The translations under genes and the position numbers were made by a program. DNA of 64,000 nt, from assembly GCA_036583965.1 (NCBI GenBank), contig JAZBQD010000019.1:17792085-17856084 (forward strand), given 5' to 3'. Shown piece by piece: positions 1 through 63,500 of the stretch. Below the pieces are notes generated by a model. It searched no databases, was not told the origin of the DNA, and saw only the letters and a program-made list of their open reading frames with translations. Numbering within the stretch: the first letter of the stretch is position 1; each line of letters opens with the position of its first letter. The stretch is from Prunella strophiata. Its lineage: Eukaryota > Chordata > Aves > Passeriformes > Prunellidae.

Positions 1-21878
<21,878 letters not shown>

Positions 21879-39900: not shown

Positions 39901-42900
39901 TACAAGATACTAAGGAAAATATGCAACGGATGGGGAAAAGCTATCCAAATGTAAGTGCTTATGCAAAATTATTCTTCAGTGACATGCCACAACGCTGTAA
40001 CATCCTTTGCTTACTGATTAATTCCTCTGAGGTAGTCTGTGCGTGTGTTTGGATACATGTATCTGACAGCCATGCTTTAGAAAGCTGCATGGTCTTCAGA
40101 GCAGTTCTGCATGCAACTTTTCATGCAGACTTAAAAATTAAAAGCATTCCTTTCCTTTTCTCTGCTGAGCTTGTAAAATGGTATCCCCTAGTAAGAATTC
40201 TTAAAGAATATTATCAGATGACCTTGAATTTCTTCAACTGTCTGCTCCTTTGACTCTTCTACTTGAAGCTGAGAACTCAGAATAGGCAGTCTGCTTTGCA
40301 CATGAATTACTTCTAACTGTGATTCTTCTGGGCTAATTCGAGTTCTTGGTGCAACTGGAACAGTCTGTTTCTGTGGAACTTTAAATAGAGAAACAATGGC
40401 AAATCATTTACATACTACCCAATCACACAACAGTACTGTTTTTAGATATATTGTGCTAAAATAACTCACAAATTCCTACACACACACACACACACACACA
40501 CAAACATCCCAAGCGTCTGTCTCCACAAAAAGCATCTTTAGCTACCTGTAAAACTCTTAGTGTTCAAGCATATTTGTGTATGTGCACAGAGCACCCTGAG
40601 CAGCACCTTGGAACACCTTCTTGTATGACAAAACAGCATGAGAAGGATTAGAGTGACAACAGCAAAGTACTCATTCATCCACTTCTACATATAATTATGT
40701 GGTAATTAACTTTCTGACAGTTTTGAAATCACTTTTCATTCCATCTTTCATATAAATTGTCATGGATCATCAATATGTCTCTTCATATGAAGCTAGCTAC
40801 CCTTTGCTGAAGTGCTTGCAAATAGAATACAAAACTGAAGGCAGCAGAATCACAGAATCACTAAGATTTGAAAAGACCCTTAAGATCACCAAATCCAGCT
40901 GTAACCTAGTCCACCACTGCCAAGTGCACCAGTAAACCATGTCCCTAAGTGCCACATCTACACCTCTTTTAAATACCTTCAGGGATGGTGACTCCACCAC
41001 TTCTCTGGACAGCCTGTTCAATGCCTGAGCACCCTCTCCATGAAGAACTTTTTCCTAATATGCAATCTTAACCTCCACCAGGACCACCTGAGGCCATTTC
41101 CCTTAGTCCTACCACTTGTTATTTGGGAAGAGATTGACCCTGACCAAACTACAACCTCCTTTCAGATATTTCTAAATCTCTGTACAGATAGTTGTGGCTT
41201 GGAATTTGGGGATAGCAGGACAACAGGCTGACTTCTGTACTTGGCTTCTGCTAAGACTGTCAGACCTGACTGTGAGAAGCTAAACTCTTCCCTTGGCTGA
41301 GTATCAGATCAGCATTCAACTTCTGACACAAACAACTAAAAGGTATCACTCAAGTACTGGATTAATTATCTATGAATTTTATCTATGTGTTTTAAATTAG
41401 CTTACTTCTATATTCCATTCAAAACACTTCAAAAATTATATTAAATATTACTTCTGAAATGAAAAAATCTGCATGATACTTCAGATAAAATTCACAAATC
41501 ACCTCCACATTAAACAACAAAGTGGTGCCTTTTGGTATCTTCATTGAAATATTCTCATACTGTTAAGTCAAACTCCAAGATCACCACTATTAAAAAGGTC
41601 AATAGTTTCAATTAATTTAGACTTTTCTAGCTATGTCTCATTTCCTGCCATACAGCTTTGTACACAAGGAAGAGCTTCCTGCATCACTTTGAAGTACTGT
41701 TTCTTACAGTTTGCAGAATTTGAGAGAGAGCAGGTGAGACTTCAGATATATAAAAGTCATGATTTAAATAGTTTAGTGAATGCTCCTTCCCTGGCAAGGT
41801 GCAATGTGTCCTGCTGACAATGTGTAGATTTATCAACACCCAGTGAAATGAAAGCAAGAGACAATAGCTGGATTTGCCCTTCTCCTAGCTAGGAGAACTG
41901 AATGCCTACACACAGACAACTGCTCAACTGCTGTGTCAACTGCAACTAGAATCACTGAACTGAAACTCAGCCTTGCTGTTAAAGGACAATATACATCATC
42001 ACACACATCCTGATACTGATCAACATACCCTGATATACATCAATAACATTGTTCCTCATTATTCTGCACTTCTAGTACCTATATCCAGTGCATTTTCATT
42101 TTTTTGCTGTTTGGCTTTTTTCTCCTCCCCTCTCAAAAGGAAGGAGGAGACTAAAGAAAGGGAAAAGAGATCAAGTAAATAGTTCAAACCACCTGGCTTA
42201 CTCTGATTGATTTCCCCTTGGCAACTATTGACTTCAGAATACCTTGGGCACTTCCATTTTGTATCTATACACTTCACAGACTTACTTATCTTGATTAATA
42301 TGCTTTAAATACTACTTCTCTCCCTTGTTTCTGTTTTCATAATTCATCACTGAACATCACTGTAATGAAACAGGACACAGTAAATCCCTCATGTATAAGT
42401 GACTTACTATTAGCATTATGTCTTATCTCTAAGTGCTTTCTTTAGCTTGGATTCATACAACAGAGTTTAGAAATACTACAGATTAACACAAGCAAAACCA
42501 GTGATAATTACCAGTGGAATAATTGGTTGTTTTTGTAACTGATTCCTGTGCTTCAGAGATTGCTTTCAGTATTAAATTCTTGTTGGCCTGTTTTGAAGGC
42601 GGCAATGAAGGTCTAAAGGAAATAAAAATAAAAATTAATTGTACATGGATTGCACAGCAACCGTATCCGTGTTAAAGACAGTTGTTTCAACAGGTTAACA
42701 AACGAATAATATTAACAGAAATCATCATCTACAATTATTTTATCCAAAACAGTTTTCAGTTAATCTGTTCTCTCAGTGGCTGGAGATCCACAAAATGCTC
42801 TAAAAAATGGAAGTCCAGACGTGTGATTTCACCTCTCAAGCTGCTGTAAAACCATGCTACAGTATGAAAGGCCATTAATTTCTTCTCACCTCTGCCCACC

Positions 42901-51900: not shown

Positions 51901-53649
51901 GCCCCTGCAACTCACAGGATCACTAAATTATGCTTTCAATTCCTTTTCTTCACCTGAAATCCAAGAAGCATCACAGACAACAACAATGCAGTTTCAGGAC
52001 TGAGGTATTTTGTTTCCAACAGAATGCTGTGTTAAGTTACCAACTTCTGCTGCTGAAAACAGCTGCTCTGAAGTGCAATATCCATTTCTTCCCCGATTCA
52101 GAAAAAACAAACAAACCTATAAGACCACAGATGTTCACAGTGCTCACCCCTCCTGTCACAAACCAAAATAAAATCCCCCCCTGCCTCTAAGATTCAAACA
52201 CATGTATTTCATCATCATTAGCTCAACGCAGCTCTTTCATTTTAAAGGTTTGTCCCACATAATGTTTCTGACCTGGCCTTTCAATTTCCTAAGGCACTCA
52301 CTCATATTTGTCCTCTCTCCTGATTTCAACAGATGCCTCACCCTGAATTCAAGAGCTGTTAAAAATATGCCTAAGAAAGTCTGAGTCCATCTCAGAGTGG
52401 CCACAGCTAACTGCTGCTGTATTTCCAAGGCTCTTGCTTTATATAATGTTTCTCCTAATGCTTCAAAGAAACTTCCTTAGATGTTCACATCATGGTTTGT
52501 CTTTCTTTCAAATCCCTTGCCACCATTTCTAAAGGAGAAGACTATTAGACTAACTTCTTAGTTATTTTCTTATAGTTCTTCATATGCTGATGTTCACATA
52601 CTGCTTCCTTTTATGCTTAGACTAATATTTTGTGAAGTATGCATCTTTCTTTCTTACTAGTCCAGCACTTCAGGTAAGTCTTCTCATGCTTAAGGCTTCT
52701 GTATGCAATAACACAGGTAATAAATAGTAAGTTCCACTAGCTAAGATTTTTTTTTCCTACATAACAAAAATTATCTAGAGAAGATTGCTGAACACATGGC
52801 AAAACTTACCAACATAAGCCCCCAGCTCCTGTAACTTTCCTTTTATAGCACCCTAAAAAATAATGAAATATTATTTAAGGGATGGATCAACAAAGTATTT
52901 CTAACTTCAAAGAGGTGGGAGGTTTAGCAAAGTTTCTCTCATTTACTGTTTGAACACATTGGTTTAACACGTTAAACTTTTCCTATTCTCTACTGCTCAG
53001 ACAGGAACGCTCTAACAGCGAGGGGCTGACAGCAAAGTAACGGAATCTCACTCTCTCTACCGCATTTTCCCATAGACCAGTTCCTGGCGCTACCATTCAA
53101 CCTCCAAGTCCCAGCTGTCCTTTTTTAAGCAGAGACCACCCGGACTCATAAGATGCAAAGAAAACTACCCTAAGATGCTCTGATAAAAGGTAACTCCCAG
53201 TTCAGCGGGGAAACACAAACCTGCCGGGATTTCCAAACTGTGACTGCCGAGTGGGAGCCTGCTGACAGGCCCTGCCGGTACCGGGGGCTCCCACCCGGCC
53301 AAGCTGCGCGCCCCCCGGGCAGCCCCGGGGCCGGGCGGGCTCTGCAGGGCGAGAGTGGCAGCCCCGGGACACAGACGGCACCCGGCAGCTGCCCGTCGGG
53401 GGACAGGGGTGCCCCGACTCCGCTTCCCACAACAACGACTCTCCTGCTCCCGCCCTCCCCCGGAGTCCCGAGGCCGAAGGACCCCGCCGCCGGCAGCTGT
53501 GACGGGGGAGCCGGCAGGAGCCCGGCGCCGCAGCCGCCGGCTGGGCCTGCCCCCACATGAGGGCCCGGCCTCCCGCCGCGGCGGAGGGAGCGACCCGGCT
53601 GCTTCTGTCTCACCCGGATCTTGCGGCTGATCTCGGTGCCGATCTCCAT
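30973..53649 (-). CDS. ZC3H14: ZC3H14, complete (17 coding exons, 728 aa)
   Basis: Nuclear poly(A)-RNA-binding CCCH zinc-finger protein (MSUT2, NAB2 homologue), which in other animals limits poly(A) tail length and acts in neurons. Coding exons in transcript order: 53649-53614, 52852-52810, 49566-49452, 46543-46503, 46353-46158, 45735-45315, 43853-43693, 42612-42512, 40378-40223, 38764-38690, 38244-38088, 36557-36340, 34903-34783, 33837-33701, 32673-32579, 31692-31586, 30979-30973. They total 2,187 nt with consistent phases: 728 residues plus TGA (human long isoform 736, from memory). Domain order: N-terminal PWI-like fold (MEIGTEISRKIR to FTVWLHGVLDKL, exons 1-4), a long low-complexity middle with a basic motif RKRR followed by an acidic EDEEEEED run (possible NLS), then five C-terminal CCCH fingers spaced CX5CX4-5CX3H. 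Start: GCGGCCATGGAG, a strong context. No frameshift or missing zinc ligand was seen. Confidence 0.97.
31586..31692 (-). CDS. ZC3H14: ZC3H14 coding exon 16: zinc finger 5
   Basis: Acceptor tttttag, donor GCCAG|gtgag. Encodes HCRFNTQCTRPDCTFYHPTV and PPRHALKWTRTQA. Finger 5 ligands are complete. ZC3H14 exon identity confirms the acceptor one codon group upstream of a decoy AG at TGTAGG. Confidence 0.94.
32579..32673 (-). CDS. ZC3H14: ZC3H14 coding exon 15: zinc finger 4
   Basis: Acceptor ctactattag, donor CAAAA|gtaag. Encodes a proline/serine linker and LCKFFPACKKMECPFYHPK, finger 4 (CX5CX4CX3H). Fingers 3-5 are the poly(A) adenosine-reading part in NAB2-type proteins. Confidence 0.95.
33701..33837 (-). 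CDS. ZC3H14: ZC3H14 coding exon 14: zinc fingers 2 and 3
   Basis: Acceptor ttccctcag, donor ACCAG|gtgag. Encodes VFPNCKFADKCLFIHPNCKY and DAKCTKPDCPYTH, completing finger 2 (CX5CX5CX3H) and all of finger 3 (CX5CX4CX3H), then the linker SRRTPHPSPKP. Confidence 0.96.
34783..34903 (-). CDS. ZC3H14: ZC3H14 coding exon 13: zinc finger 1
   Basis: Acceptor ccatccag, donor TGCAA|gtgag. Encodes EKVLERCKYWPACKNGDECV followed by YHHP. Finger 1 ligands C-X5-C-X5-C-X3-H are all present. The first Cys of finger 2 is at the exon end and the finger continues in the next exon. Confidence 0.96.
35985..36092. repeat. A/C-rich low-complexity tract
   Basis: Stretch of A runs interspersed with CAAA, CAAC and short C runs. 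On the transcribed (-) strand it is a T/G tract with G runs. Probably a decayed poly-A or CAAA repeat in ZC3H14 intron 12. Confidence 0.8.
36340..36557 (-). CDS. ZC3H14: ZC3H14 coding exon 12
   Basis: Acceptor tgtttgatag, donor TGACG|gtaat. Encodes KPASPKFIVTLDGVPSPPGY, LSDQEEEDMYLMEGLKPL and a segment ending RQLEDCD. Confidence 0.96.
38088..38244 (-). CDS. ZC3H14: ZC3H14 coding exon 11
   Basis: Acceptor cccgatgcag, donor ACACG|gtgaa. Encodes VHSDTRSFILKKPRLSEEMA and a segment ending SGRLIQT. Confidence 0.94.
38690..38764 (-). CDS. ZC3H14: ZC3H14 coding exon 10
   Basis: Frame-neutral 75-nt exon, acceptor gtttttttag, donor TCAGG|gttaag. Encodes QKELSCRLQIDPMIEDALQV. Being a multiple of three with matching phases, it can be skipped without a frameshift. 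Confidence 0.9.
40223..40378 (-). CDS. ZC3H14: ZC3H14 coding exon 9
   Basis: Acceptor tatttaaag, donor TTCAAG|gtcat. Encodes VPQKQTVPVAPRTRISPEES and a Glu/Gln-rich disordered segment. Phases fit the flanking exons (2 nt in, 1 nt out). Mammalian isoforms differ around these middle exons. Confidence 0.88.
40478..40502. repeat. (AC)n microsatellite
   Basis: About 12 AC units, 100 bp upstream (transcript sense) of ZC3H14 exon 9. Likely length-polymorphic. Confidence 0.9.
40845..41180 (-). mobile_element. CR1 LINE 3' fragment
   Basis: The + strand begins AATCACAGAATCACTAAGAT and continues through GACCCTTAAGATCACCAA, CCACTGCCAAGTGCACCA, AAATACCTTCAGGGATGGTG, CTGGACAGCCTGTTCAATGC and CTACAACCTCCTTTCAGATA. 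This is the classic reverse complement of the avian CR1 3' region. It is 5'-truncated at about 335 bp, as usual for CR1, and is the best preserved LINE copy in the window. It lies in ZC3H14 intron 8. Confidence 0.88.
42512..42612 (-). CDS. ZC3H14: ZC3H14 coding exon 8
   Basis: Acceptor tttcctttag, donor CACTG|gtaat. Encodes SKQANKNLILKAISEAQESV and TKTTNYST, strongly conserved with mammals as remembered. Confidence 0.94.
43693..43853 (-). CDS. ZC3H14: ZC3H14 coding exon 7: basic and acidic motifs
   Basis: Acceptor taccttgtag, donor AGAAG|gtact. Encodes SSRKRRLPVVSSVVKVKKFC, a likely nuclear-localisation stretch, followed by an acidic GEDEEEEEDYG run and a Ser-rich end. Confidence 0.94.
45315..45735 (-). 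CDS. ZC3H14: ZC3H14 coding exon 6 (largest)
   Basis: Acceptor tttttgtcag. Encodes the conserved block AVIDIKPEPDDLIDEDLNFV and SYG-type sequence TVTYGSSRPSAEIYRPPA, then a more divergent tail (SLQGNRQLDTQGCRSLETGQ). IKPEP resembles a SUMO acceptor motif (psi-K-x-E). The end is set at GAG|gttggt because only this site keeps the frame into exon 7; a stronger-looking gtacga four bases further breaks it. Confidence 0.88.
46011..46108. repeat. Direct repeat pair flanking an AT-rich inverted repeat
   Basis: Near-identical 20-mers at 46011-46030 and 46089-46108 (TTAGAATGTACTACACTCAC; one G/A difference). Between them a 9-bp inverted repeat ATTAATTCT (46051-46059) / AGAATTAAT (46071-46079). Origin unknown. 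Confidence 0.8.
46158..46353 (-). CDS. ZC3H14: ZC3H14 coding exon 5
   Basis: Acceptor gtctccacag, donor TCCAG|gtaag. Encodes a serine-rich disordered segment including SSESNIFESNLPSSKSSS and RNDSRVSTSSQE. Confidence 0.93.
46503..46543 (-). CDS. ZC3H14: ZC3H14 coding exon 4
   Basis: Short 41-nt exon, acceptor ctatttcag, donor ACTG|gtaag. Encodes LHGVLDKLRSVTT, the end of the N-terminal domain. Confidence 0.93.
49452..49566 (-). CDS. ZC3H14: ZC3H14 coding exon 3
   Basis: Acceptor tttctattag, donor TCTG|gtatg. Encodes DEELPDYIMVMVANKKSQEQ and EDLSLFLGNNTVRFTVW, the core of the PWI-like fold. Confidence 0.96.
52810..52852 (-). CDS. ZC3H14: ZC3H14 coding exon 2
   Basis: Acceptor attttttag, donor GTTG|gtaag. 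Encodes GAIKGKLQELGAYV of the PWI-like N-terminal domain. The first residue is Gly where I recall Ser in mammals. Confidence 0.93.
53614..53649 (-). CDS. ZC3H14: ZC3H14 coding exon 1
   Basis: Encodes MEIGTEISRKIR and ends CGG|gtgag in phase 0. It lies in the CpG island, 17 nt downstream of the GGGAC repeat and about 200 bp from the minisatellite. Start choice rests on the invariant vertebrate N-terminus and the GCCATGG context. Confidence 0.95.
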
Positions 53650-53665
53650 GGCCGCGCCGAGCCTG

Positions 53666-53700
53666 CCCCGTCCCGTCCCGTCCCGTCCCGTCCCGTCCCC
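53666..53700 (-). repeat. ZC3H14: (GGGAC)n in ZC3H14 5' UTR, G-quadruplex motif
   Basis: Six to seven pentamers, CCCGT on + and GGGAC in the sense of the ZC3H14 transcript, ending 17 nt before the start codon. Successive GGG runs with 2-nt loops satisfy the usual G3N1-7 quadruplex rule. Confidence 0.85.
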
Positions 53701-53846
53701 CGCGGCCCCGGGCCCGGCTCCCACCGCCGCCCGCGCGGGTACCGAGCGCCGCTCGGGCTCAGCGCGCGGCCTCCGCCGGCACCGCCCCCTGCCGGGCGGC
53801 GGCCGCACCGCGGCGGGACCCGGGGGTGGAGGGGAGAGCGGCGGGC

Positions 53847-55382
53847 GGAGCCATGGCTGAGGGGGGCGGAGCCATGGCTGAGGGGGGCGGGCGGAGCCAT
53901 GGCTGAGGGGGGCGGAGCCATGGCTGAGGGGGGCGGAGCCATGGCTGAGGGGGACGGAGCCATGGCTGAGGGGGGCGGAGCCATGGCTGAGGGGGGCGGG
54001 CGGAGCCATGGCTGAGGGGGACGGAGCCATGGCTGAGGGGGACGGAGCCATGGCTGAGGGGGACGGAGCCATGGCTGAGGGGGACGGAGCCATGGCTGAG
54101 GGGGGCGGAGCCATGGCTGAGGGGGACGGAGCCATGGCTGAGGGGGGCGGAGCCATGGCTGAGGGGGACGGAGCCATGGCTGAGGGGGGCGGGCGGAGCC
54201 ATGGCTGAGGGGGGCGGGCGGAGCCATGGCTGAGGGGGGCGGGCGGAGCCATGGCTGAGGGGGACGGAGCCATGGCTGAGGGGGACGGAGCCATGGCTGA
54301 GGGGGACGGAGCCATGGCTGAGGGGGGCGGGCGGAGCCATGGCTGAGGGGGACGGAGCCATGGCTGAGGGGGGCGGGCGGAGCCATGGCTGAGGGGGGCG
54401 GAGCCATGGCTGAGGGGGACGGAGCCATGGCTGAGGGGGACGGAGCCATGGCTGAGGGGGGCGGAGCCATGGCTGAGGGGGACGGAGCCATGGCTGAGGG
54501 GGGCGGGCGGAGCCATGGCTGAGGGGGGCGGAGCCATGGCTGAGGGGGACGGAGCCATGGCTGAGGGGGACGGAGCCATGGCTGAGGGGGGCGGGCGGAG
54601 CCATGGCTGAGGGGGGCGGGCGGAGCCATGGCTGAGGGGGACGGAGCCATGGCTGAGGGGGACGGAGCCATGGCTGAGGGGGGCGGGCGGAGCCATGGCT
54701 GAGGGGGGCGGAGCCATGGCTGAGGGGGGCGGAGCCATGGCTGAGGGGGACGGAGCCATGGCTGAGGGGGGCGGAGCCATGGCTGAGGGGGGCGGGCGGA
54801 GCCATGGCTGAGGGGGGCGGGCGGAGCCATGGCTGAGGGGGACGGAGCCATGGCTGAGGGGGACGGAGCCATGGCTGAGGGGGACGGAGCCATGGCTGAG
54901 GGGGGCGGGCGGAGCCATGGCTGAGGGGGGCGGGCGGAGCCATGGCTGAGGGGGACGGAGCCATGGCTGAGGGGGGCGGGCGGAGCCATGGCTGAGGGGG
55001 GCGGGCGGAGCCATGGCTGAGGGGGACGGAGCCATGGCTGAGGGGGGCGGAGCCATGGCTGAGGGGGGCGGGCGGAGCCATGGCTGAGGGGGGCGGAGCC
55101 ATGGCTGAGGGGGGCGGGCGGAGCCATGGCTGAGGGGGGCGGAGCCATGGCTGAGGGGGGCGGGCGGAGCCATGGCTGAGGGGGGCGGAGCCATGGCTGA
55201 GGGGTACGAGGGGAGCCATGGCTGAGGGGGGCGGGCGGAGCCATGGCTGAGGGGGGCGGGCGGAGCCATGGCTGAGGGGGGCGGGCGGAGCCATGGCTGA
55301 GGGGGACGGAGCCATGGCTGAGGGGGGCGGGCGGAGCCATGGCTGAGGGGTACGAGGGGAGCCATGGCTGAGGGGGGCGGGC
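53847..55382. repeat. GC-rich minisatellite, 68 units of 21 or 25 bp
   Basis: Tandem array of unit GGAGCCATGGCTGAGGGG plus a variable end. I counted 25 units ending GAC and 16 ending GGC (21 bp each), 25 ending GGCGGGC and 2 ending TACGAGG (25 bp each). 41 x 21 + 27 x 25 = 1,536, exactly the span. GAC units concentrate in the middle, 25-bp units towards the distal end, and the TACGAGG units are units 61 and 67. Each unit contains the palindrome CCATGG. GGC-type and 25-bp units contain a GC box (GGGGCGGAGC or GGGGCGGGC), which GAC units lose. There is no unique spacer, so it is not a CRISPR-like array. It lies about 200 bp upstream of the ZC3H14 start codon. Confidence 0.97.
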
Positions 55383-55446
55383 TGCGGGTCTTGCTCCTGA
55401 CCGCCCCGCCGGGAGCCGGCGTTGTTCTGTGACCGCTAGAACCACC

Positions 55447-58400
55447 ACTGCGGGGTTATTTCAATAGTAATGCTCTTTCTCGAGAACTACACAAATTGAA
55501 TATTATGTTGTCTGTTAAAAAACAAATAAATTATGGTATAGCCATACACAAAATATTCAAGTAACTTTTAATGTCACACTACAGCTATATAGGTATCCTG
55601 GTGCCCACCACAGCCTCTTTATCACCTCCTTTTCTCAGCAGGGCAGGAGAGAAAAAATGCAACAAAAAGCCTCGTGTTGAGAACAGGAACAGGAGACCTC
55701 ACTCACTGATTACTGTCATGCACAAAACAGAGGTGGGGAAATTAATTAATTAACAATCAAATCAGAATAGGATAACGAGAAATAAACCCAAATCTTAAAA
55801 CACCATTCCCTGCACCCCTTCCTTCTTCTTCGGTTTAATTTTACTCCTGATTCCCTCCATGTCTTCCCCCAACACCTAGGTAAGGGGAATGGGGCTTACA
55901 GTAAGTTCATACCTGTTTTCCCTGACACTGTTTCCTTCTCCCCTGCTCCCCTTAGAAACAGTACCACAAAGACTGCCTGCTACTGCTGCCATGTGGATCC
56001 TTTGCATGGGCTGCAGTTCCTCACAACCTGCCTCGCCACGGGTCCCTGCCATGGGCTGCAAGTCAGTCCTTCAGGAACAGGCGGCTCCATTGCACGTCCC
56101 CCACAGGGGCACTGCTCCAGCGTGGGCTCAGCTCTTCACAGGGCCACGGGTCCTGCCAGGAGCCAGCTTCCATGCATGGGCTTCCACACATCCACAGCCT
56201 CCAGGCATCCATGAGCTCCAGTAGAGGTGTTCCACAGGCTACAGGTGGATCTCTGCTCCCCTGCTGACCTCCACAGGTTGCAGGGGCGCAGCTGCCTCAC
56301 CATGGTCTTCACCACAGGGCTGCGGGGGAATCTCAGCTCCAGTGCCTGGAGCACCTCCTGCCCCTCCTTCTGCACTGACCTTGGTGTCTGCAGAGCTGTT
56401 CCTGTCACATATTCTTGTTCCTCTCCCTGGCTGAAATTTGCTTGTGCACAATAACTTTTTTACCCTTCTTAAAAATGTCATCCCAGAGGCGCTACCAGGG
56501 CCACTGATGGGCTTGGCCTTGGCCAGTGGAGGGTCTCTCCTGGAGCAGGCTGGCATTTTCCTTATCAGTCATGGAGGAAGCTTCCAGCAGCTTCTCACAG
56601 AAGTCACCCCTGTAGCCCCTCCACTACCAAAACTGGCCACACACACCCAGTACAAGCATCTACTGGTGTTACTGCTACAAGGGATTAGTTGCAGAGGGAG
56701 GAAGAATGATGTGGAGACAAGCCTACAAGGTAAGCATAATAGTAAGCACAAAAGAAGTAATGTTTGAGGCAAACAATTTATCTTTTGCACCAATGCCCTG
56801 GATTCACTTCAGCTGGTTTAAAGAGTAGTCATATTATAGAAAGCCCAGCCTACAGATAAAGGGTCTTTTACAAGTAATGCCACTGATTAAAATAAACTCC
56901 AGGCATTGTAGTTAACAGCTGTATTAATCCCTTTCTGCATCACTGTTCCTAATATAAATCAAACATCATACAGAGATAGCTTAGACTAATTATTGCTAAT
57001 GATCTGAGCTGTTTGCCTGGCTCCACTTATAATATATTGGTGTTACAGTGAGAGGGAACCAATAACAAATCAGTTTAATTACACCATTCCATTTTAACCT
57101 TTTAAGAGACACATTTTGCTTTCTTAAGATTTCAATTATGTTGTACTGTGTTGTAGTACTGGAAAAAGAAAAATAATTATTGCAGAACATAAACAAGAAT
57201 TAAGTGTATTTCATAAGTAAAGGATTTACTTTAGTAAAAGCTACTGTGTTTGAGAAAAGTTTCCTTTGCAAATAATAGCTGGAGCTCATTTCTTCAAGTC
57301 CAGCACTACAGTCTGTGTAGAAAAACTGCCTGTTTTCTTCTAATAGGAAAATTCTATAACGCTAATTAGTTACTTAGTAGAACATGTTCAACACTTTACA
57401 GTGCCTTGTAAGTAAAAATGAATCTTGTACACATGAAATTGCAGGCTTCAAGCATGTAATAAACATATAGTATGGTAATTTTTCTAGCACTCATCTCTAC
57501 TATCATCAAAAATATATAATGATGTATAAAGACCCAGCCATCTCTTGCTTTCTCGCAAATAAGAAATAGAATGAATGAAAAAACAGGAAGGCTTCAGAGC
57601 CAAAACATGACAAATAAAGTGAATTAGTTTAGAGAACAGCTTTCAGATTTAGAATTAGAGGTATTCTGACTTTTTCAGTTCATCATGTTACTATTTTGCA
57701 TAGTGTAAATTAAGATATTTTTCCACATGACTTCTTCATTGTTTCAGCACTGTGGGAAAACCCCTTTAACTAGCAGTTTCTGGGTTATCCTGCCTGTGTT
57801 TTTATCACAAATGGGTAACTCTCCACCAGGCTGAGGAGTATATACTTGCATACCACTTTTCTGCCTGGAGGGTGCCTGATTCTGCTTCCTGATTGGCTTG
57901 CTTCCAACTTTCTGTTTTACCTTTAGTCAATACAAAGACCAGATGCTGGGGAGTTCCTGTGGAATTGAAATAAAGTGAATATTTGCATCAGCTTCCACCT
58001 ATTGGCTGATACACTCAAACAGCAATCACATATTTGGACCAAGATGAAAAAAAAAACCAAACAAAAGGACCCTCCAAAAACCTGTCTCAGAAGGGAGGAT
58101 GTCTCCCTTTTTCTGAGAAAAAAAATAGGTTTATTCCTGTTCCACTATGGGCAGGCCATATTCAACCCAGTGGGCAGAAACTTCCCTGGTACCTTTAGAA
58201 CAAAGGGTGCACAATTCAGCTCTGGGGTATTATTCATTTCCTCACATAAACTTCAAAAACAGAATAAAGAGTATGGCAAAGATGAGGTCAAAAACCATGA
58301 ATGTTGTGAGTGCTGGCCAGGGCTTAAAGGGGGAAGCAGAAGCTCAGTACTGTGCCCTCAGGTAATCCCTCCACATCTTACTGATGTGTCTTTACCAGAG

Positions 58401-60509: not shown

Positions 60510-63500
60510 GTAAGGGGAAAACAGCGGGCACAGTAAAAACATAGCGGGTGATCTTCTCTGCTGTGTACTGTAAGGCTGAAGAGTTTCAACCACTTACTTT
60601 TGAAAAGTAAAAGGTTGAAGTGGTTGTGGGACTGTGCTTCTGTGGGTGGGCGAAGTTTGAGATATGCACTTACTGCTGCTCTCTCAGTCCGAGAGTCATG
60701 TCAAAGATTAACTGGTAAAACAAGGAGAGGGTGGAGTATTTTGATTACTTTTTTGGCTGCCCAAATATCTCTGAAATAAAAGTATATGTACTTAAAGAAT
60801 GTGAAGTAATAGAAACCCTTTATCACCATGATATATTGCTGTTTTATTTTGATTACTGTCATTTATGCAGGCTATTAAAAAAAATTGTAAAGTCAAATGC
60901 TAAGTAATTGAGGGGGGAGTAGGAGGTGAAGGTAAAGGAGAAAGATACCACAGTGCTCACTAATCACACATTAGTCATGGCCATGTTGCTGAAATTCTAA
61001 CATAGCATTTTTGAAGCTGCAGGTTTCTGTTGAAGTATAAAGGTACAAAGTTTGGCCACTAAAGACATTGTTAGCTGTTGCACGAAAATTCCAGGCTTGG
61101 TAAATAAAGGCTTGTTATTGTAAAGGTCATCAGCTGGATTTGTAACTCCTGGCAGTATGTAGCCATGAGGTTTTTGCTAAAGTAGCTTAAAACAGTGCAG
61201 GTAGGTCTGAATTTAAAGTCATGCAGCAGGCAAATTTGAGAGCACCCAGGACTGCAGAATGCACAGCTGCTGAATAAAACTAGTACAGCTATGTTTGCAA
61301 GAACTACACATGGCCAGCAGTAGAAGATACTGAATGATACCCTGGTGTTATTCCGCAAACTTGCCTTAATATTTATTATATGTTAGGAATCTTTTTTTAG
61401 TTGGTCTTTTGTGATGTGGTCTGAAAGTTAATTACTTGAGTTTTTCTTGTTATAGATTGGTTTCAGAAGTCATGAAGATTATGTCAGGCATACAAAAATG
61501 AAGTAATTTAGGGTAAATGCTCAGTGCACCATTCAGTGTAAACAACATATAATAACCTGGAGAATGTTCCTGGCTGGCACATTCTGAAAATTCTGCTCTA
61601 AACTTCCTTCCTATGTTTGCATTGCTACCTGTTTGCATAGTGAAGTAACTGAAAGTCTGAGGCTGCCTCATGTCAGCATTACATGGTTTGGAAATTTCAC
61701 CTGTCAGGTTAGCCTCTGGTTAGTGATTTTTTTTTCCCCCCATGCTCTTAGAATATTTTTCTAACCCTTGATATGGACATAAAAGATTGAAAGTCTTTCA
61801 CACTCAGTGGTACTCCATAAAACCCGAGATTTTCTGCTCTTCTGCATTTCTGACTGTAGCTTTCAGAGAGGAGTAAATTGGTTTCTCTCATTGCTGTAGC
61901 ACCAAAGAAGACACCTAACTGTGCAAAGAATGTATTGGAAAATGGGCCTTGGGGACGAGAGCTAAGGTCAGCCAGCTAAGTTAGTCTGTCAGGAATAAAC
62001 CCAGTGCAAGATTCTGCTGGCAGTGGACAGGGGACTAAAAGCTTCTGTCTGTAGAGCATTCCCTGCATGCTGTTCAAGCAGGGCTGGATTTGGAGGATCA
62101 AAGTGCAGAGGGAGTAATAACGTGAGGATTCCCTCTTTATCCCTAAATTTTTCAGGGAAACCTGTTGCTATCTGTTGTTACTTATTCTACAGGTATACCC
62201 AAAACCAAATTTAGTTGGTGTTTGGGTGAGGATTGTTTTTTCATTCAGCTAAGATTTTAGGTGGTATCTGTTGAGGATGGTGATAGTGTAGAGTGGTAGA
62301 ACTGCTTCAAGATTATCACAAACGAGGTAATGAAATGTGCTTCTGGTCATTCTTTGGAGTAGGGTTGCAAAGATGTCATTGAGAAAAAATGTTGTGCTGC
62401 CTCCTTTTCCTCCCCATTGTAGGCTCTTAGTGTCTTTCCACCTTCCTTTCTTCTTTGCGGTGCTGCTCACTGGGGAGCAGGGAGTCTGATACGGGTTTTT
62501 TAGCCTGAAGAGTTTGTGGTTGTGTTGGATAAGTTTCTAGGTGGGTATATCAGTGTCCGAGGAGAACGTGGTATCTGCTTGTTTACAGCTATACCTTTGA
62601 GTTTAAAGGCAGGTGTGCTAGGAAGAATGCTTCTTCCGGTTCCTCCATTCCAAAGAAACGCATATCCTCACGTTCCTCCTGCCTGGTCATCCCAAGAGTC
62701 CTCCGAAATCAAACTGTGCCTTTTAATATGTGCTACTAATACTGTGCCAGCCTGGAAAAAAAAAATTGCAAAAAGAAAAGTAGGCGTTTGTTTTCTTTCC
62801 CCTTCGGTGGGGGCGGCCCTGCCGCTAGAGGTGCAGGGGCAGAGCTGCTGTCCGGGCAGCGGGGGCCGGGCGGTGCTGCCCGGCCCGGGGGCGCTCCCTC
62901 CGCCGCCCCGCACTGCCCAGCCCAGCCCGGAGCCACCTCACCGAGGGAATGGCATCCCTTACCCAGGGCAGCGGCGTGCTACGGGGAGATCTCTAAGGAG
63001 CCTTCCAGCCCCGACCCTTCCGTGACGCTGTGACAGATTTCACAGACTGGGGTGCGTGCGCTAAGAAAACACTTGGAAAAGAGGAAGGCAAAGCATGGAA
63101 TAGAGTTGACAGGAGAAAAGGCGTGAAGGTGTTTGCAAAAAGTGGGGAGATGGATGGCTACCTGTAGGCTGGGTAAGAGTATGTTTTTCAAGGAAAAATT
63201 AGAAAATAAATGGTTCTCAGAATTCATTACTCTCTTGGTGAGGCAAAGCATGATCTGAAGCATCATACAGCAGTTTAGCATAAGGAATAATGGTACAATT
63301 TGCTGTAATCCATGGAAGATTAAAGGAATTGCACTTTAATTATCTGGTAGGAAATGGCTAAGGTGTGAGTTTTAAGGCCTCCCTTGCCTTTCTTTTTTTC
63401 CCCTTTATCATTTATGGGGCTTGGTTTTGTGTTTAATCCAACAGCAGATAGTGGCTGAGGCTGCACAATGCTCTGAAAAACAAGCCAGGTTGCTGGATTT

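What the first reader, a model, noticed from the sequence alone, without database searches (positions are those of the whole stretch)
53847..55382. 68-unit GC-box minisatellite expanded inside the ZC3H14 promoter
Seen: an uninterrupted 1,536-bp array of 21- and 25-bp units sits within a CpG island, about 200 bp upstream of the ZC3H14 ATG. Some 41 units carry a GC box and 25 have lost it by a single G-to-A change. Known: GC boxes bind Sp1-family factors. Inference: the array is a tunable promoter element whose copy number and GAC/GGC/25-bp composition could set ZC3H14 output. Birds lack PRDM9 and recombine at promoters, which would help such an array turn over.
Basis: partly seen in the sequence, partly recalled or inferred. 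Interest (0 to 1): 0.75.

Follow-up and report, generated by a model that had tools for sequence, protein, structure and literature searches.

The report
Scrambled minisatellite upstream of ZC3H14
A 1.5-kilobase run of 68 nearly identical 21- and 25-base repeats lies just upstream of the start of a gene that looks like ZC3H14; it resembles the fast-changing repeat arrays known from other animals, and whether it affects the gene is untested.

Summary
The array is real: 53843-55380, 68.3 copies. It has 68 exact AGCCATGGCTGAGG anchors and 67 complete units: 25 GAC (21 bp), 16 GGC (21 bp), 24 of 25 bp, 2 divergent 25-bp units. No other base varies among units. It starts 194 bp from the A of the ZC3H14 ATG (53649, minus strand).

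New here: the order of unit types looks random. Plain duplication seldom gives this in simulation; adding long-range unit exchange, or recurrent type switching, usually raises the fit. Interspersed variants are described for autosomal human minisatellites (PMC2599865). Neighbouring units can pair by a 10-bp palindrome. All 68 units carry an ATG on the gene's strand, 30 in ZC3H14's frame without a stop before its ATG.

Best reading: a young, exchange-shuffled minisatellite beside a promoter; a tuning function is plausible but unshown. Reads, population variation, relatives, species and other copies in the genome could not be checked.

The parts
53843..55380 (.). Minisatellite array, 68 units of 21 or 25 bp
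   Evidence: TRF; unit parsing; anchor search
55189..55213 (+). First divergent 25-bp unit (TACGAGGGG tail)
   Evidence: (type D) with anchor positions; sequence
55335..55359 (+). Second divergent 25-bp unit, the last complete unit of the array
   Evidence: (type D) with anchor positions; sequence
53650..53842 (-). 193 bp between array and ZC3H14 ATG, presumed core promoter and 5' UTR (GC 0.87, CpG o/e 1.03)
   Evidence: promoter role inferred
53614..53649 (-). Presumed first coding exon of ZC3H14, MEIGTEISRKIR, followed by GTGAG as in a splice donor
   Evidence: gene name from recall plus the zinc fingers
53170..55455 (-). Stop-free reading frame through the whole array, in frame with the ZC3H14 ATG
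   Evidence: 30 of 68 array ATGs lie in this frame

Best explanation
The feature is a young minisatellite, of the kind known from human autosomes, just upstream of the ZC3H14 start and in its presumed promoter. Its GC-rich unit has a palindromic core (AGCCATGGCT). It turns over by unit-level exchange between copies, most likely meiotic gene conversion between alleles or sister arrays, which keeps the units identical while mixing the three main unit types into random order. Shown: the array, its homogeneity, the random order, the absence of a unit with both the A and the 4-bp insert, the pairing potential. Inferred: meiotic exchange, youth, copy-number polymorphism, and at most a modest effect on ZC3H14 through Sp/KLF-type factors or spacing. 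(The first two rivals below concern function and can hold together with this.)
For: 68 of 68 anchors are exact and all variation lies in the 5-9 bp tail of the unit. The 65 non-divergent units (1,461 bp, arithmetic) hold no private substitution; at a recalled bird rate near 2e-9 per site per year this bounds a star-like age at about 1 million years (own arithmetic). Unit order: longest repeated word 6 against a mean of 6.18 in 5000 shuffles, identical neighbours 20 against 20.9; gapped self-alignment p 0.41, 300 shuffles; runs p 0.48 for 21/25 and 0.49 for GAC/GGC. Duplication without exchange gave orders like this in at most 2.6% of kept runs over the 23 of 24 settings that kept any, and 0 to 9.1% over 5 settings with another criterion. 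With 5 global unit exchanges per duplication: 12 to 60% over the same 5 settings. PMC2599865 (abstract and passages) describes the structures of many autosomal minisatellites as highly interspersed, against blocks at the haploid MSY1, whose 25-bp unit is predicted to form a hairpin. Neighbouring units pair by 10 bp on either strand, z -3.9 and -5.8, 0 of 200 shuffles as good for each. PMC4878770 (abstract and passages): flycatcher crossovers are densest in promoters and CpG islands.
Against: Recurrent switching between types fits the order about as well as global exchange: 25 to 47% at rate 5. In one search global exchange gave only 0 to 35% over 18 settings (three of them 0, with few kept runs), 100% in one with a single kept run, and 5 settings kept no run. 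Exchange with units within 3 places does not scramble: 0 to 4.7% at rate 5, at most 9.4% at any rate. The weak-base unit GAC is the commonest (25 of 65), not what strong GC-biased conversion predicts. One haplotype only; no reads, alleles or relatives seen. The simulations are simple, conditioned on three types surviving, and some settings kept few runs.
Confidence: 0.6

Rival explanations
1. Tunable promoter element: copy number and the GAC/GGC/25-bp mix set ZC3H14 output through Sp1-family binding.
For: 65 GGGCGG cores in the array, which lies 194 to 1731 bp from the ATG. A one-unit change in a 61-bp human promoter repeat that binds Sp1 and AP2 in vitro changes expression (PMC3899988, passages).
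Against: Only 16 decamer sites; no helical phasing beyond shuffles; 25 of 67 units box-less by one base and a random order give no sign of selection on composition (inference). No expression or binding data.
Confidence: 0.25
2. Passenger array without effect on the gene; the core promoter is the CpG-dense 193 bp next to the ATG.
For: That stretch has CpG o/e 1.03 at GC 0.87, the highest of the six stretches measured (next 1.02 in the 58 bp at 55383-55440). Homogeneity and random order need only turnover.
Against: The array adjoins the presumed promoter and carries GC-box cores, so complete neutrality is not assured.
Confidence: 0.45
3. Assembly or base-calling artefact.
For: No reads could be inspected; G-runs beside CpG are error-prone contexts (recalled).
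Against: A context error G-to-A should also strike 25-bp units: found in 25 of 41 short units and 0 of 24 long ones (2 divergent units left out, nominal p 1.7e-7, units not independent). A 4-bp difference beside 68 exact anchors is hard to get by error (inference).
Confidence: 0.07
4. A source of upstream start codons: transcripts starting in the array would carry strong-context ATGs, giving N-terminally extended ZC3H14 or blocking uORFs.
For: 68 of 68 ATGs on the gene's strand between 55460 and the ZC3H14 ATG read TCAGCCATGG; 30 are in the ZC3H14 frame with no stop before its ATG, 24 overlap that ATG and end at 53612, 14 end at 53761 (unspliced reading).
Against: No evidence that any transcript starts in the array. 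The ATG is part of the palindrome, so it follows from the unit. A protein search with the in-frame reading gave nothing at E <= 0.001 among the 7980 candidates scored, though the query is repetitive and the search sees close relatives only.
Confidence: 0.06

Closest known systems
Human autosomal minisatellites with interallelic exchange
   Same: Unit size class and interspersed variant units (PMC2599865, passages)
   Different: No mutation or allele data here; the array lies in a presumed promoter
MSY1 (human Y-chromosome minisatellite)
   Same: 25-bp unit with predicted hairpin, about 70 copies (PMC2599865, passages)
   Different: MSY1 variants lie in blocks and units of other lengths are never seen; here the order is random and units are 21 or 25 bp
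CSTB promoter dodecamer repeat (EPM1)
   Same: GC-rich tandem repeat in a promoter (PMC10814315, passages)
   Different: 12-bp unit, two or three copies in health, expansion gives loss of function; no effect is known here
SV40 21-bp repeats (recalled; no paper seen)
   Same: 21-bp units with GC boxes upstream of a start
   Different: Few copies in a virus; here 68 units of two lengths without helical phasing

Membership tests
Minisatellite | Head-to-tail units longer than 10 bp | tested here: met
   68.3 copies, period 21; definition in PMC3899988
Minisatellite with interallelic exchange | Variant units interspersed, not in blocks | tested here: met
   Order like random shuffles
Minisatellite with interallelic exchange | High germline length mutation and allele diversity | not testable with these tools
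   One haplotype; no reads or population data
Sp1-bound promoter repeat | GC boxes in the units | tested here: met
   GGGCGG core in 40 of 67 complete units; decamer at 16 sites
Sp1-bound promoter repeat | Factor binding and effect of copy number on expression | not testable with these tools
   No binding or expression data
SV40-like phased GC boxes | Boxes on one face of the helix | tested here: not met
   No phasing beyond shuffles in 9 tests, smallest p 0.054
G-quadruplex-forming repeat | Four G3+ runs with loops up to 7, or high G4Hunter score | tested here: inconclusive
   0 motifs with loops <= 7 on either strand; on the plus strand 1 with loops <= 12, 15 with loops <= 15, 24 two-tetrad motifs; G4Hunter mean 1.31, maximum 1.76 per 25 bp, above the usual 1.2 (threshold recalled)
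CpG island | GC above 0.55 and CpG o/e above 0.6 | tested here: inconclusive
   Array GC 0.76, o/e 0.55; only parts pass in 200-bp windows

The most novel reading that the evidence does not exclude
A meiotically shuffled promoter minisatellite whose units each carry a GC-box slot and a strong-context start codon, so that copy number and order tune both transcription and the N-terminus or translation of ZC3H14 differently in each individual.
Probability: 0.05. Interest if true: 0.75.

Novelty: new member of a known kind. Interest (0 to 1): 0.36.

Why it matters
If the array is polymorphic and shuffled in meiosis, it is a ready marker for exchange at a promoter in a lineage thought to lack PRDM9, and a test of whether promoter repeats tune a gene for a poly(A)-RNA-binding protein (gene role recalled). 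If not, it is an ordinary GC-rich repeat.

Tried and rejected
Rejected: helical phasing of GC boxes; higher-order repeat structure (a match excess at shift 14, 26 of 53, is not significant over 20 shifts by my own estimate, and no call tested it); exchange between close neighbours as the scrambler. Not settled: G-quadruplexes. Rfam gave no match at the gathering thresholds.

Led nowhere: viral contigs for a 19-base piece of the unit, 0 matches; protein search with the in-frame array reading, none; papers on ZC3H14 with promoter and tandem repeat, 3 listed, judged off topic from titles and abstract starts; papers on bird promoter minisatellites, GC-box 21-bp repeats, PRDM9 and hotspots and bird assemblies: listings, no title about this array. 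PMC11946086 was searched for SV40 and '21 bp' and holds neither. PMC4878770 was searched for a mutation rate and gave none, so the rate used is recalled. The most wanted test, the unit elsewhere in the same genome, did not complete.

Full report
TRF reports one array at 53843-55380, period 21, 68.3 copies; its rows with periods 46 and 67 describe the same array. Parsing on the exact anchor AGCCATGGCTGAGG gives 68 anchors and 67 complete units, 41 of 21 bp and 26 of 25 bp, with only four sequences: 25 end in GACGG, 24 in GGCGGGCGG, 16 in GGCGG and 2 in TACGAGGGG. The first 16 bases are the same in 67 of 67. With up to 2 mismatches the anchor occurs nowhere else in the window.

The setting. MEIGTEISRKIR begins at 53649 on the minus strand and is followed by GTGAG. 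I recall it as the ZC3H14 N-terminus. Of three minus-strand segments tested further along, two match Nab2-type CCCH fingers (PF14608, E 1e-9 and 4.2e-6, both above the cut-off) and one matches nothing; a plus-strand segment matches the EML propeller (E 3.1e-11, but 43.7 bits against a cut-off of 88.2). One finger segment finds four PDB chains, all Nab2, weakly (E 0.021 to 0.077). I did not reconstruct the gene. Two CR1-like stretches (14830-14842 and 40846-40858, recognised from recall) would fit a bird or other sauropsid, but the pattern count itself, 4, is no more than chance (mean 3.09).

Composition. The 193 bp between array and ATG have GC 0.87 and CpG o/e 1.03; the array has 0.76 and 0.55. 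The array is G-rich on the plus strand, so C-rich on the strand that reads like the ZC3H14 mRNA (GC skew 0.485 in 54001-55000). R-loops would then be expected mainly from transcription away from the gene (inference).

Order of units. The string of 67 types behaves like a shuffle in each controlled test: repeated words of 3 to 8 units, longest repeat, identical neighbours, gapped self-alignment, runs of 21/25 and of GAC/GGC. Uncontrolled: 25-bp GGC units rise from 6 to 7 to 11 over the three thirds of the array, GAC units fall from 10 to 9 to 6, and both divergent units are in the last third.

Simulations. Duplication without exchange, from 5 to 40 founders, looked like the array in at most 2.6% of kept runs over 23 settings, a 24th keeping none (criterion z at most 0.3 above observed, although the printed heading says 0.5). 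With 5 global exchanges per step in that call: 0 to 35% over 18 settings (0 in three with few kept runs), 100% in one setting with a single kept run, and 5 settings keeping none. In one search, with another criterion and 5 settings: no exchange 9.1, 0, 3.0, 0 and 0%; global exchange at rate 5, 12 to 60%; type switching at rate 5, 25 to 47%; exchange within 3 units at rate 5, 0 to 4.7%, and at most 9.4% at any rate. So long-range reassortment or recurrent switching is favoured over plain duplication; the two are not separated by order. Independent recurrent G-to-A is unlikely, because the A is found in 25 of 41 short units and 0 of 24 long ones, the 2 divergent units left out; the p value is nominal since units share descent.

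Literature. PMC2599865 (abstract and passages) sets the blocks at the haploid Y minisatellite MSY1 against highly interspersed structures at many autosomal loci and ascribes most human minisatellite mutation to interallelic processes; it also says that hairpins could give slippage but do not easily explain changes without change of length. PMC10781513 (abstract and passages) states that birds lack PRDM9 and ties recombination to regulatory regions and CpG islands. PMC4878770 (abstract and passages) finds crossovers densest in promoters and CpG islands and a 59% transmission of G/C alleles at non-crossovers. Against a strong bias at this array, the unit with A is the commonest (25 of 65).

Structure. 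In single strands the palindrome AGCCATGGCT of one unit pairs with that of the next, on either strand, with lower energy than all 200 shuffles. This could promote slippage (inference). There is no G-quadruplex motif with short loops, but 24 two-tetrad motifs and a G4Hunter mean of 1.31 leave the point open.

Start codons. Each unit has an ATG on the gene's strand in the context TCAGCCATGG: 68 of 68, of which 30 are in the ZC3H14 frame, 24 overlap the start in another frame and 14 end before it. The frame 53170-55455 is open through the array into the presumed first exon. This follows from the unit sequence and would matter only if transcripts start in the array, which is unknown.

Judgement. 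A real, probably young, homogenised and scrambled minisatellite beside a promoter. Nothing is claimed about absence from print beyond the searches, of which I saw the listings.

Noticed in passing
53667-53699: A perfect CCCGT pentanucleotide repeat (6.6 copies) lies between the array and the ZC3H14 ATG, in the presumed 5' UTR.
   Followed up: no
62671-63150: A second CpG-island-like stretch, perhaps the promoter of the divergent neighbour (PTPN21 by recalled synteny; not verified).
   Followed up: no
55900-56700: GC-richer stretch beyond the array that looks like a dispersed repeat of uncertain class; not identified with a tool.
   Followed up: no
40846-40858 and 14830-14842: CR1-like 3' ends on the minus strand (recognised from recall; the pattern count is at chance level).
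   Followed up: partly
53843-55380: All variation among units lies in the 5-9 bp tail; the 16-bp palindrome-bearing part is invariant in 67 of 67. With few independent changes this may be chance.
   Followed up: partly
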